Numbered from the stretch's first letter, positions 34,854 through 39,275 are shown. The stretch is 64,000 nt of DNA from Cystobacter fuscus (GCF_002305875.1 NZ_CP022098.1:6944001-7008000); one strand, 5' to 3'. Numbers and translations are program-made. Notes: generated by a model from the letters alone, not told the origin.

Positions 34854-36275
34854 TTGAAGCAAGGGAAGATCCTGGCACTGGTGGGGGTGCTCGTCGTGGC
34901 GCCCATGGCGCTGGCGCAGGGGGGAGCCAAGAGCCCGAAGCAGTCCGCGGGGAAAACGGCCGCGCGGGCCCTCGAGGTGTACGAGCAGGGCAAGCGCCTC
35001 TACGACGCGAAGAACTACGCGGGCGCCCTCGATCGCTTCGATCAGGCCGCGGCAATCGAGCCCGGCAAGGCGCGCTGGCAGTACAACCGGGGCCTCGCCC
35101 TGCGCAAGCTCAGCCGCTTCTCGGAGGCCCGCGAGGCCCTGCTCCACTCGCGCTCCCTGGACCCGGCCTACAAGCGCGCGGAGATCGACGACAAGCTCCG
35201 GGAGATGGGCTTCTCGCCAACACCGCCGCCGAGCACTCCCTCGGAAGAGCCCTCGACTCCGTCCACCAGCACTCCCTCGGAAGAGCCCTCGACTCCGTCC
35301 GCCAGCACGCCCCCCGCTCCGCCGCCACCCGAGCCTTCCGTTGTCCCGCGAGGCGGGACGTCGAAGAAGCCGGCCAACCCCATGTTGTCCTTCTGTCTCT
35401 GCTCCGGGATGGCCCTCCTGTTCTTCCTGTTGTTCCGCCGGCAGCTGTCGAAAACGAAGCCCCTTCAGGACTCGCACCACGCCTCCACCTCCACCCTCCA
35501 GCCCCGGAGCGAGGAGCTCGCGCCGCTGGAGGGGCAGCTGAAACAGGTCGCGGCCTCGCTCGCCCAGGTGGAGCATGCCTTGCGGCTGAACGAGGACGCC
35601 GACCTGCGAGCACTGCTCAACCAGGCCACGATGGCCGAGCAGAACGCCTGGCAATCGATGGAGGACTTCCGGAAGGGAACCGCGTCGCGGTCCGCCGTGA
35701 AGCGGCGGATCGACAAGGCACACGAGGCGACGGAGGCGGCGGTGGCCCATGCGCACGGCCTCTTTGGCGAGCAGGCCTTCCTGCCCGAGGGCGAGCGCGT
35801 GGGTTGCTACTTCTGCGCACGCCCCCTGGCCAACCCGTCCTTCCGGATGCAGGTGCCCCTCAAGCGGGGCTCTCAGGTCACGCACGTGCTCGCGTGCCCC
35901 CCGTGCGCGAACATGGCCGCCGCGGGTCAGCCTCCCCCCGTGAAGGTGCGGCGATCGAGTTCTGGCCAGACCCAGCACTGGAGCGAGGTGCACGGGTACG
36001 ATCCCTATACCCATCGTCACCAGCCCCATCCGGACATGAGCACGATGCCCGCCTGGCAGTACGCTCCGGAGCGCTCACTCGGCGAGGTGGCGGCGATGGC
36101 CGCGGGAGGCGCGCTCGCGACGGGACTGGCGGCCTACGGGGTGAGCCGGTTGCTGGATCTCGACAGCGCGAGCGAGGCGGCGGCGGCCCAGGCCGCGACC
36201 CAGGCCGCGACCCAGGCGGCGGCGAAGAGGGCCAGTGAACACCGCGAGGAGCGCGACTGGAAGGATCACTCCTGA
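34854..36275 (+). CDS. Membrane-anchored TPR protein with CxxC/CxxC zinc-ribbon-like domain; first gene of the radical-SAM operon
   Basis: 473 residues from TTG at 34854, chosen because of AGGGAG 8-9 nt upstream and because a signal-like hydrophobic segment starts there (ILALVGVLVVAPMALAQ). Order: signal; two or three TPR units (residues ~35-115, EVYEQGKRLYDAKNYAGALDRF); a Pro/Ser/Thr/Glu linker with a duplicated 12-residue unit; a transmembrane helix (PMLSFCLCSGMALLFFLLF, ~180-198); a helical region; a domain with CYFCARP and CPPC that could bind zinc; and a C-terminus with Ala/Gln/Thr repeats. It is probably an inner-membrane scaffold. I do not recognise a named family. The stop overlaps the glycosyltransferase start (TGATG), so the two are linked. 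Confidence 0.72.
   Translation: MKQGKILALVGVLVVAPMALAQGGAKSPKQSAGKTAARALEVYEQGKRLYDAKNYAGALDRFDQAAAIEPGKARWQYNRGLALRKLSRFSEAREALLHSRSLDPAYKRAEIDDKLREMGFSPTPPPSTPSEEPSTPSTSTPSEEPSTPSASTPPAPPPPEPSVVPRGGTSKKPANPMLSFCLCSGMALLFFLLFRRQLSKTKPLQDSHHASTSTLQPRSEELAPLEGQLKQVAASLAQVEHALRLNEDADLRALLNQATMAEQNAWQSMEDFRKGTASRSAVKRRIDKAHEATEAAVAHAHGLFGEQAFLPEGERVGCYFCARPLANPSFRMQVPLKRGSQVTHVLACPPCANMAAAGQPPPVKVRRSSSGQTQHWSEVHGYDPYTHRHQPHPDMSTMPAWQYAPERSLGEVAAMAAGGALATGLAAYGVSRLLDLDSASEAAAAQAATQAATQAAAKRASEHREERDWKDHS
35232..35303 (+). repeat. 36-bp tandem duplication in the linker of the TPR protein
   Basis: Two nearly identical copies (35232-35267 and 35268-35303) encode STPSEEPSTPST-type units in the Pro/Ser linker. 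This is a length-variable linker segment. Confidence 0.85.
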
Positions 36276-37363
36276 TGGGCGCGCCCCGCTTCGTCTTCTA
36301 CGCCGTCAATGGTCTGGGACTGGGCCACGTCACACGCCTGGTGTCCATCGCCCGGGCGCTGCGCCGGCTCTCGCCGGAGTGCGAGGTGCTCTTCCTCACC
36401 TCGTCCGAGGCCGATCACGTCATCTACCGCGAGGGGTTCGCCGCGGTGAAGCTGCCCTCGAAGACCATCCGCGAGCGCTGTGGCCTGCGCAAGGGCCACT
36501 ACCTCAAGCTGGTGCAGACGGTGACGTGGAACACGATCTCCGCGTTCGATCCGGACGTGCTGGTGGTGGACACCTACCCCACCGGCTCTTTCGAGGAACT
36601 CATTCCGGTGCTGCGCTGGCGCCAGAAGAACGTCTTCGTCTTCCGGGAGCAGCGGGCCGCGGTGGCGGGCTCCGAGCTGCTCCAGGCCTCGCTGCGGCTG
36701 TATGACCGGATCCTCATCCCCCACGAGGACGTGGCCCGGGTGGGGCCACTGCCCGAGCCCGCCAAGGCCCTGGCCGTGGGCCCCATCCTCATCCGCGAGC
36801 GCCACGAGCTGCCAGACCGGGCCCGGGCACGCGAGGCGCTCGGACTGCCACGGGACGGAACCCTGCTCTACGCCTCCTTCGGCGGCGGTGGAGACCCCGA
36901 GGCAGCCCGGGCATTGACGCTCACGGCCCAGGTGGCGCGGGAGCTGCCCGGGGTGCGACTGGTGGTGGGCGCGGGTCCCCTGTGGCGCGAGCAGCCGCCC
37001 GCGCTGGAGGGAGCGGTGGTGCTCCAGGGCCGCTACCCCGCGCTGGACTTCCTGCCGGCCTTCGACGCGGCGGTGACGGCGGCCGGCTACAACGCCGTCC
37101 ACGAGTTGCTGTACGCGGGCATCCCCTCCGTCTTCGTGCCCTTCGAACGGATGGTGGACGACCAGGAGAAGCGCGTGCACGAGGTGGAGGACGCGGGGGC
37201 GGGCCTGGCGTGCTCGCCGCTGACGCGCGAGGGGCTCACCCGCGCGGTGCGCGAGCTGATGAAGCCGGAGGTGCGCCAACGCCTGGGCGCGAGGGCTCGC
37301 GAGAAGGTGGCGCGCAATGGCGCGGAGCCCGCGGCGCGGGCACTGCTGGAGTTGCTCCCATGA
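36275..37363 (+). CDS. MurG/GT28-like glycosyltransferase in the radical-SAM operon
   Basis: 362 residues with a GT-B two-lobe layout. The N-terminal motif YAVNGLGLGHVTRLVSIARAL is the glycine-rich acceptor loop of MurG-type enzymes. The C-terminal donor half has LYASFGGGG and VTAAGYNAVHELLYAGIPSVFVPFER, equivalent to the MurG/GT28 GG(S/A)xTxxE region, with N-x-x-H-E here. It should transfer an NDP-sugar to an unknown acceptor. It is coupled to both neighbours: TGATG at 36273-36277 and ATGA at 37360-37363. It is not MurG itself, as no peptidoglycan genes are nearby and the acceptor half differs. Confidence 0.82.
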   Translation: MGAPRFVFYAVNGLGLGHVTRLVSIARALRRLSPECEVLFLTSSEADHVIYREGFAAVKLPSKTIRERCGLRKGHYLKLVQTVTWNTISAFDPDVLVVDTYPTGSFEELIPVLRWRQKNVFVFREQRAAVAGSELLQASLRLYDRILIPHEDVARVGPLPEPAKALAVGPILIRERHELPDRARAREALGLPRDGTLLYASFGGGGDPEAARALTLTAQVARELPGVRLVVGAGPLWREQPPALEGAVVLQGRYPALDFLPAFDAAVTAAGYNAVHELLYAGIPSVFVPFERMVDDQEKRVHEVEDAGAGLACSPLTREGLTRAVRELMKPEVRQRLGARAREKVARNGAEPAARALLELLP

Positions 37364-38400
37364 AGAACCCGAATCCGATGCGCGAGCGCCTCAAGGGCTA
37401 CCTGGAGCGCCGGCCACGCACCGGGCCGGAGACGGTCCACCTGGACGTCACCAACGCGTGCAACCTGGACTGCATCACCTGCTGGAACTACGCGCCGGAC
37501 CTGGCGCAGGCCAAGCCGGTGGCGTGGAAGCGGCAGCGGATGGACGCGGCCACCTTCCACCGCATGGTGCACGAGTGCGCCGACGCGGGCGCCGAGCGCA
37601 TCGTCATCAGCGGCGGTGGCGAGCCCTTCACCCACCCGGACATCTACACCTTCATCGGCGCGGTGAAGGCGCGCGGCCTGCGGCTCACCGTCATCTCCAA
37701 CGGGACACTGTGTGATTGGGAGCGGGTGCGCGGGCTCGGCGTGGACCAGATGCTGCTCAACATGGCCTCCGCCTCTCCGGAGACCTATGTGGCCTACCAC
37801 CCCAACCAGCCTCCAGAGACCTTCCACCGGCTGCTCGAGGGCGTACGCACGGTGCGCGACGTCACCGCCGTGAACCTGGTGCAGGTCATCAACCGGGTGA
37901 ACTACCAGGAGCTGCCCCAGATGGTGCGGCTCGCGCATGACGTGGGCGCGCGCTCGTCCTTCAAGGTGGGAGACGTGCCCCGGGGCACCGAACACCACGC
38001 GCTCACCGCCGAGCAGCGGCAGCAGGTGCTCGGCGAGCTCATCCCCGAGGCGCGCAAGCAGGCCAAGGCGCTCAAGGTGAAGCACAACCTGGACGCGTAC
38101 GAGGTCCAGTTGTCGGGCAAGTGGCCCTCGGGGCGGGAGACGGGGTGCTTCGCGGGCTATCTCTACAGCCGCGTCTACGTGGACGGGCGCGTCTTCTTCT
38201 GCTGCGAGCACATCGAGGCGGGGCACGTGAAGGACGGTGCCTTCCAGGACCTGTGGCGCGCGCCGGCATACGAGGCGGTGCGCGAGCGGCTGCACCGGGG
38301 CGAGTACTACCCGGGCTGCGCGCGCTGCGGAAAGCACGACATGAACTTCGCGGCGTCGAGGGATCTGCGCGAGATGCTCGAGGAGGGAGAGCTGCCATGA
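37360..38400 (+). CDS. Radical SAM/SPASM protein 1
   Basis: 346 residues. The [4Fe-4S]/SAM motif is CNLDCITCWNYAP (CxxxCxxC) near residue 35, followed by the GGE motif ISGGGEPFTHP. The C-terminal part has the twitch/SPASM pattern: CFAGYLYSRVYVDGRVFFCC, then LW and YPGCARCGKHDMN. SPASM radical-SAM enzymes typically modify peptides or proteins, or sugars in antibiotic pathways; the substrate is unknown. It is coupled to the upstream glycosyltransferase (ATGA) and to the downstream second radical-SAM gene (ATGA at 38397-38400). Confidence 0.9.
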   Translation: MKNPNPMRERLKGYLERRPRTGPETVHLDVTNACNLDCITCWNYAPDLAQAKPVAWKRQRMDAATFHRMVHECADAGAERIVISGGGEPFTHPDIYTFIGAVKARGLRLTVISNGTLCDWERVRGLGVDQMLLNMASASPETYVAYHPNQPPETFHRLLEGVRTVRDVTAVNLVQVINRVNYQELPQMVRLAHDVGARSSFKVGDVPRGTEHHALTAEQRQQVLGELIPEARKQAKALKVKHNLDAYEVQLSGKWPSGRETGCFAGYLYSRVYVDGRVFFCCEHIEAGHVKDGAFQDLWRAPAYEAVRERLHRGEYYPGCARCGKHDMNFAASRDLREMLEEGELP

Positions 38401-39275
38401 GCGGCCCACGTCCCACGGTGAGCTGGAACATCGTCGGCGGGTGCAACTACCGCTGCACGTACTGCGTGCAGAAGCACATGCCGGGCATTGGCGGGCCCAC
38501 GGACGAGCAGCTCGAGGCGGCGCTGACCGCGCTCACGGCACTGCCGGGAAGCTGGGAGTTCAAGATCTCCGGCGGAGAGCCCTTCCTGCTCAAGCGGCTG
38601 CCGGAGGTGGCACGGCGCCTGGCGGAGGCGGGACACAAGGTGTCGCTGCTCACCAACCTGTCGGCCCCGCTGCGGGTGATCTCCACCTTCATCGAGGCGG
38701 CGGGAGAGCGGTTGCGCACCTTCTCGTGCTCGCTGCATCGCGAGGAGGTGGAGGAGACGGAGTTCCTCGAGAAGGCGCGAGCGGTGAAGGAGCTGCTGGC
38801 CCGATGGCCGCGCGCCACCTTCGTCGTCAACGGCGTGGTGGTGCCCGGACAGGTGCCGGAGGTGGCCGCCAGCCGCGAGCAGTTCGAGCGGGCGGGCATC
38901 AAGTTCTATCCCCAGCTCATGCGGGTGAACGGCAAGCCCGCCGAGTACGGCTGGATGGACCGCTGGCGCATCGACCGGGCCTTCGGGGACATGGCGTCCC
39001 CGTCTCGGATGAATCGCGGCTATCAGCTCAAGGGCCGCCTGTGCCACGCGGGCAGCCAGTACTTCATCATCCATCCCAAGGGGGACGCCTTCTCCTGCTA
39101 CCCCGGCAAGCGCTTCGGCGACGGACACCTGGGCAACGTCTTCGACGGGACGCTGAAGCTGTGGGACGCGCCCCGTCCGTGCCACTACGAGGTATGCCCC
39201 TGCACGGTGCCGCAGAACCGGGGCATCATCGAGGGCTTTGGCGGCGGGGCCGGAGAAGACGCCGTCAGCTTCTGA
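38397..39275 (+). CDS. Radical SAM protein 2 with Cys-rich C-terminus
   Basis: 292 residues. The cluster motif CNYRCTYCVQKHMPG (CxxxCxxC) is near residue 17 and GGE in KISGGEPFLL. The C-terminus holds LCHAGSQYFIIHPKGDAFSC and a closely spaced CHYEVCPCTVP, which could bind one auxiliary Fe-S cluster. It is clearly not a duplicate of the preceding radical-SAM gene (different core and cluster motifs), so two different radical steps are likely. It is the last gene of the coupled operon. The convergent DUF808 gene begins 3 nt beyond its end. Confidence 0.88.
   Translation: MSGPRPTVSWNIVGGCNYRCTYCVQKHMPGIGGPTDEQLEAALTALTALPGSWEFKISGGEPFLLKRLPEVARRLAEAGHKVSLLTNLSAPLRVISTFIEAAGERLRTFSCSLHREEVEETEFLEKARAVKELLARWPRATFVVNGVVVPGQVPEVAASREQFERAGIKFYPQLMRVNGKPAEYGWMDRWRIDRAFGDMASPSRMNRGYQLKGRLCHAGSQYFIIHPKGDAFSCYPGKRFGDGHLGNVFDGTLKLWDAPRPCHYEVCPCTVPQNRGIIEGFGGGAGEDAVSF

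What the first reader, a model, noticed from the sequence alone, without database searches (positions are those of the whole stretch)
34854..39275. Coupled operon: TPR/zinc-ribbon membrane protein, MurG-like glycosyltransferase, two different radical-SAM proteins
Seen: four genes, every junction a start/stop overlap (TGATG at 36273, ATGA at 37360 and 38397). The first has a signal-like segment, TPRs, a duplicated linker, a membrane helix, CxxC/CxxC and Ala-rich repeats. The second has a glycine-rich GT-B acceptor loop. The third and fourth have CxxxCxxC cores, are not duplicates, and both carry extra C-terminal Cys. Known: SPASM-type radical-SAM enzymes modify peptides, proteins or sugars. Inference: the set may make and glycosylate a radical-modified product, or modify an envelope component, with the first protein as membrane scaffold. 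I do not recognise this combination, and no precursor peptide is visible.
Basis: partly seen in the sequence, partly recalled or inferred. Interest (0 to 1): 0.72.

Follow-up and report, generated by a model that had tools for sequence, protein, structure and literature searches.

The report
Travelling four-gene radical-SAM glycosyltransferase cassette
Four overlapping bacterial genes form a self-contained cassette that has moved between distant bacteria; it pairs a sugar-transferring enzyme and two radical-chemistry enzymes with a partner protein that always ends in the same short tail, and it matches no system described so far.

Summary
In detail: X (34854-36275), GT (36275-37363), RS1 (37360-38400) and RS2 (38397-39275) overlap at every junction. 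The set is a real unit. The same four genes, in the same order, occur in many Myxococcaceae and in Betaproteobacteria at about 60-65% identity for GT, RS1 and RS2. They share no other neighbour and are patchy within families, which points to transfer as a block. A diverged version in other Myxococcota keeps GT, RS1 and RS2 but replaces X with a non-homologous soluble protein. No protein reaches a curated NCBIfam cut-off.

The new lead is X's C-terminus. Every X seen in an RS1-encoding genome ends in D-x-S, including the non-homologous replacement and an X-GT pair whose RS1 lies elsewhere. Two GT-X loci in genomes without RS1 do not. In unrelated ORFs the tail occurs in about 0.6%.

I infer, unproven, that X's cytosolic tail is where RS1 docks or acts, with GT glycosylating the product. 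A sugar or glycolipid pathway is the main rival. No experimental evidence was found.

The parts
34854..36275 (+). X: signal peptide - TPR - Ser/Thr/Pro linker - membrane helix - cytosolic coiled coil - zinc-ribbon-like CxxC/CxxC - HWSE..DPY motif - Gly/Ala segment - Ala-rich helix - C-terminal D-H-S
   Evidence: homologues in the complete cassettes
36261..36275 (+). codons for the C-terminal residues K-D-H-S of X and the stop codon; D-x-S is invariant in all X proteins seen in RS1-encoding genomes
36275..37363 (+). GT: GT-B glycosyltransferase of the GT28/GT1 superfamily with NGLGLGH acceptor loop and conserved TSEAD....KLPSK motif in the N-terminal domain
37360..38400 (+). RS1: radical-SAM/SPASM protein, CNLDCITC plus C263, C281, C282, C320, C323
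38397..39275 (+). RS2: radical-SAM protein, CNYRCTYC plus auxiliary C216, C234, C262, C267, C269 invariant to distant homologues

Best explanation
A horizontally mobile protein-modification cassette. X carries a cytosolic C-terminal tail ending in Asp-x-Ser-COOH that RS1 recognises and either modifies there or uses as a dock while modifying a nearby site on X. RS2 adds a second, dispensable radical modification. GT, encoded directly next to X, transfers a sugar from a nucleotide donor onto the modified site or product. Shown: the cassette, its conservation across phyla, the tail and its co-occurrence with RS1. Inferred: transfer as a block, that the tail is the docking or modification site, the order of steps, and the chemistry.
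For: Conserved four-gene order with no other shared neighbour in two phyla. GT and RS1 trees recover compatible groups; RS2 is not in conflict. No room for a separate precursor gene inside the operon, so X is the only encoded protein left as a substrate. X is immediately upstream of GT in every locus where both are seen, including loci with other radical-SAM types. D-x-S ends all X proteins in RS1-encoding genomes against 2 of about 330 unrelated ORFs; it persists where RS2 was not found (G010, G151) and is absent from the two GT-X loci whose genomes lack RS1 (G189, G192). It is shared between X families that a profile-profile comparison does not relate. The soluble X type has no membrane segment, so its tail is cytosolic like the enzymes. 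Precedent for a radical-SAM enzyme plus glycosyltransferase acting on a ribosomal product: mycofactocin (PMC7491314).
Against: No biochemistry. Lineages are few: effectively three or four with D-x-S and two without. Motifs of the GT acceptor-side domain are conserved while X changes, which would also fit a shared non-protein acceptor. No RRE/PqqD-like recognition domain was detected in any of the four proteins. The nearest solved folds to the GT mostly act on small molecules (modest-confidence model). D-x-S could be a docking or degradation signal without being modified.
Confidence: 0.4

Rival explanations
1. Small-molecule, glycolipid or envelope-glycan pathway: RS1 and RS2 alter a nucleotide sugar, glycolipid or other small molecule, GT adds a sugar to it, and X is a scaffold or regulator whose D-x-S tail docks the enzymes.
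For: GT belongs to the GT28/GT1 superfamily, whose solved relatives mostly glycosylate small molecules or lipids. The best solved-structure sequence match of RS1 is a cytosylglucuronate decarboxylase, a sugar-nucleoside enzyme (7e-11). A distant RS2 homologue (28% identity) sits in a polysaccharide-type gene cluster (L034). GT N-terminal motifs are conserved while X is exchanged.
Against: No sugar-nucleotide synthesis, flippase, polymerase or transporter gene is shared between loci. The exchanged X is soluble. Exact conservation of a protein C-terminus has no direct role here except as a dock.
Confidence: 0.35
2. Peptide-derived cofactor system working like mycofactocin: RS1 modifies the C-terminal residues of X, a protease releases them, and GT glycosylates the released cofactor.
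For: Radical-SAM plus GT plus conserved C-terminus of a ribosomal product (PMC7491314).
Against: X is a 410-600 aa multidomain protein, not a short precursor; no peptidase, RRE or cofactor-using oxidoreductase is shared between loci.
Confidence: 0.1
3. Anti-phage defence cassette built around viperin-like radical-SAM enzymes.
For: Patchy and self-contained; PADLOC pVip models match RS1 and RS2 at 5e-12 and 1.5e-13.
Against: For RS2 the match covers only about 84 residues of the radical-SAM core, and no match reaches the NCBIfam viperin cut-off (41-42 against 180 bits). Auxiliary cysteines are present, no kinase is encoded with it, and neighbours are housekeeping genes such as TypA.
Confidence: 0.05

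Closest known systems
Mycofactocin biosynthesis (MftC radical SAM, MftF glycosyltransferase, MftA precursor; PMC7491314)
   Same: Radical-SAM enzyme plus glycosyltransferase acting on a ribosomal product; the C-terminus of the product is key (last point from general knowledge).
   Different: No short MftA-like precursor, MftB/RRE, MftE peptidase or MftD; RS1 scores 46 bits against a 265-bit cut-off; GT is GT28/GT1-like; two radical-SAM enzymes.
His-Xaa-Ser (HxsB/HxsC) and SynChlorMet (ScmE/ScmF) paired radical-SAM cassettes (NCBIfam names)
   Same: Two non-identical radical-SAM proteins encoded together.
   Different: RS2 against HxsC 17.6 bits (cut-off 267.9); RS1 against ScmE 59.7 (cut-off 400) and ScmF 56.8 (cut-off 400); no HxS-repeat protein; a GT is present.
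STM4011 family radical-SAM protein (NF038073)
   Same: Best full-length model match of RS2 and its distant homologues.
   Different: 48 bits against a 200-bit cut-off.
MurG / GT28 and GT1 glycosyltransferases
   Same: GT-B fold, C-terminal donor domain, Gly-rich loop ending in His.
   Different: murG equivalog 45.6 bits against 250; N-terminal motif TSEAD....KLPSK kept throughout this set, in a region the Pfam GT models do not cover.

Membership tests
Radical SAM superfamily (RS1, RS2) | CxxxCxxC and Radical_SAM domain above Pfam cut-off | tested here: met
   63.6 and 47.2 bits against 29.5; Cys invariant
SPASM domain, RS1 | Pfam SPASM above cut-off | tested here: met
   34.9 against 21.5 bits
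SPASM domain, RS2 | Pfam SPASM above cut-off | tested here: inconclusive
   19.5 against 21.5 bits, just below, but five auxiliary Cys invariant
MurG | TIGR01133 equivalog cut-off | tested here: not met
   45.6 against 250.25 bits
GT28/GT1 GT-B glycosyltransferase superfamily | Glyco_tran_28_C above cut-off and GT-B fold | tested here: met
   32.6 against 22 bits; Foldseek E to 7e-14 with GT-B enzymes
GT28/GT1 GT-B glycosyltransferase superfamily | transfer of a sugar from a nucleotide donor | not testable with these tools
   needs purified protein
Mycofactocin system | MftC equivalog, MftA-like precursor, MftB | tested here: not met
   46.4 against 265 bits; no short precursor or PqqD-like gene in the operon
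HxsB/C and SynChlorMet cassettes | NCBIfam equivalog cut-offs | tested here: not met
Prokaryotic viperin | NF038283 cut-off 180 bits | tested here: not met
   42.4 (RS1) and 41.4 (RS2) bits
RiPP / protein-modification system | encoded substrate bearing a radical-dependent modification | not testable with these tools
   X proposed from gene linkage and the conserved tail only

The most novel reading that the evidence does not exclude
A new class of protein post-translational modification: a radical-SAM enzyme recognises or chemically alters the extreme C-terminus (Asp-x-Ser-COOH) of a large multidomain protein, the site or product is then glycosylated, and the system spreads between phyla as a block with interchangeable substrate proteins.
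Probability: 0.2. Interest if true: 0.85.

Novelty: new variant of a known kind. Interest (0 to 1): 0.6.

Why it matters
Radical-SAM modification enzymes are usually known with short precursor peptides or metabolites. A cassette that links two of them and a glycosyltransferase to a large multidomain protein with an invariant C-terminal tail gives a compact, testable case of an unknown modification or glycoconjugate, and a sequence rule (D-x-S together with RS1) by which to find others.

Tried and rejected
Assignment to known radical-SAM families by NCBIfam: no cut-off reached. Defence-system reading: only generic radical-SAM core matches. Plasmid collection: no RS2 match at 1e-10. Viral contigs: only about 25%-identity radical-SAM proteins, no cassette. 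Conserved neighbours outside the cassette: none across lineages; TypA and YedI-like flanks are shared only within the same genus. Homology between the two X types: not found. A carboxylate-clamp TPR reading was considered because the TPR part of X resembles HSP-tail-binding TPRs; judged by eye on the alignment the clamp residues are not kept, so it was dropped. The fold search of X returned only TPR-type matches among the rows shown, and Pfam names nothing in the cytosolic part. Papers: none found describing this gene combination.

Full report
Observation. X (34854-36275, TTG start), GT (36275-37363), RS1 (37360-38400) and RS2 (38397-39275) overlap by 1 to 4 bases at each junction. Only three bases separate RS2's stop from the end of the next, convergent gene, so there is no space for a precursor-peptide gene inside or directly after the operon; the 164 bases upstream of X were not searched for small ORFs. 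The window lies in a 12.35-Mb single-contig genome, placed in Myxococcaceae by its kin and by close matches in Hyalangium. The linker duplication (36 bp, 2.2 copies) and the Ala-rich repeat (12 bp, 3.6 copies) are real.

What the proteins are. X: TPRs by Pfam, no named domain elsewhere; in the AlphaFold2 model the TPR part and a part from about residue 219 are confident, with low confidence between. A signal-like segment, a membrane helix at 176-194 followed by Arg/Lys, and a Gly/Ala-rich segment at 412-430 are predicted from hydropathy. GT: GT28 C-terminal domain and a modest-confidence GT-B model whose nearest solved folds are natural-product, sterol and glycopeptide glycosyltransferases. 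It is far below the MurG cut-off. RS1: radical SAM plus SPASM. RS2: radical SAM with five invariant auxiliary cysteines, closest over its full length to the STM4011 family but below its cut-off.

The set is conserved as a block. Around each, X, GT, RS1 and RS2 lie in the same order wherever the contig is long enough, apart from an insertion between GT and RS1 in L007 and a rearranged fragment in L014. Clustering all neighbouring ORFs gave no other family shared across lineages. In Myxococcota 17 of 195 genomes have RS2 at 1e-40: three of the four sampled genomes of the window's genus, genus g7, and part of g4 and g26, but not most other genera of the family. In Rhodocyclaceae 5 of 250 sampled genomes have it, in the family of the Rhodoferax-type locus 1 of 301, and in wider Pseudomonadota samples only the query genome. 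Flanks are shared within the genus (TypA upstream, a YedI-like gene downstream) but not with the other genera examined. The GT tree places the betaproteobacterial sequences beside the two Myxococcaceae groups and inside the branch that separates them from another Myxococcota genome; the RS1 tree gives compatible groups; the RS2 tree is poorly resolved and has very long distant branches, so it is only not in conflict. I read this as transfer of the block between phyla; the direction is not settled.

Diverged versions. L032, L033 and L143 (other Myxococcota families) carry GT with a C-terminal extension, RS1 at 38-43% identity and RS2 homologues (two in L032 and L033), with a different protein in X's place and a small upstream protein of unknown function. 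This second X is soluble by hydropathy, coiled-coil rich, and ends in a conserved RWNP..DFLWWD.M.DG.LDGNFI.EV segment and a variable His/Asp tail. A profile comparison finds no homology with the first X (probability 0.2%). In G010 an X-GT pair (GT 50% identical) stands alone; RS1 (52%) is on another contig; RS2 was not found at 1e-12. G151 has X-GT-RS1 but no RS2 at 1e-12. RS2 therefore looks dispensable. L141 and L142 show GT beside another coiled-coil X, with radical-SAM proteins of a different type and proteins with a CYFNPGGF motif nearby.

The C-terminal D-x-S. All X proteins in cassettes with RS1 end in D-x-S (DHS, DQS, DVS or DAS), although the preceding tail diverges; in the 19-sequence alignment of the first X type D471 and S473 are invariant. 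The G010 X, with RS1 elsewhere in the genome, ends DRS. The X proteins of L141 and L142, whose genomes have no RS1 (none at 1e-6, or only generic matches near 7e-14), end PES and ISS. Among 355 ORFs with distinct tails from the fetched loci, 25 end in D-x-S and 23 of these are X proteins, leaving 2 among roughly 330 others. Because cassettes are related, the count of X proteins is not a count of independent events; the informative points are the unrelated second X type, the persistence without RS2, and the absence without RS1.

Interpretation. The tail is cytosolic in the soluble X type and, by its single membrane helix after a signal peptide, in the G010 X; I take it to be cytosolic in the window's X too, though the Gly/Ala segment leaves doubt. 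With no other encoded substrate, the simplest mechanism is that X's tail is where RS1 docks or acts, RS2 adds a further step, and GT, next to X in every locus seen, glycosylates the result. The main rival is a sugar or lipid pathway in which X only docks the enzymes; conservation of the GT N-terminal domain across X types and the sugar-nucleoside enzyme as RS1's best solved match speak for it. I put these at 0.40 and 0.35.

Comparison with the known. Mycofactocin is the nearest in logic (radical SAM plus GT on a ribosomal product; PMC7491314), and the paired radical-SAM cassettes HxsB/C and ScmE/F in layout; membership was tested by curated cut-offs and not met. No paper describing this combination was found in the searched library, which lacks most subscription journals. 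I rate it a new variant of a known kind.

Noticed in passing
L142:726-10302 and L141:8024-14005: GT-X loci with other radical-SAM proteins (three in L142, at least one in L141) and paired proteins with a CYFNPGGF motif and no Pfam match; a related but distinct system.
   Followed up: partly
L047-L126 (viral contigs): 59 of 80 viral loci found with RS2 also carry a radical-SAM protein of the L142 type within the fetched stretch; two read by eye hold several radical-SAM-like ORFs.
   Followed up: partly
L034:4006-4959: An RS2 homologue (28%) inside a polysaccharide-type cluster with exporter-like, glycosyltransferase-like and UbiA-like ORFs (named by eye).
   Followed up: no
L137:8675-10486: X of G010 has an extra domain between TPR and membrane helix that looks by eye like a TPM domain (weak Pfam Rv1476 match).
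   Followed up: no
L140:6571-7257 and L138:7111-8112: A truncated X with no GT or radical-SAM gene found nearby, on a stretch that also holds a transposase-like ORF, and a solitary X without the D-x-S tail: likely decaying remnants.
   Followed up: partly
L032:11347-12057 and L033:12693-13034: Small protein encoded upstream of the second X type, about 50% identical between loci, no Pfam or NCBIfam family above cut-off; nuclease-like by eye only.
   Followed up: no
L007:6233-8000: Insertion of about 1.8 kb between GT and RS1, including an ORF that looks by eye like a Bro-N protein.
   Followed up: no
L008 and L011: One Rhodoferax assembly (G196) holds two or three RS2 copies on separate contigs: true duplicates or a strain mixture.
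   Followed up: no
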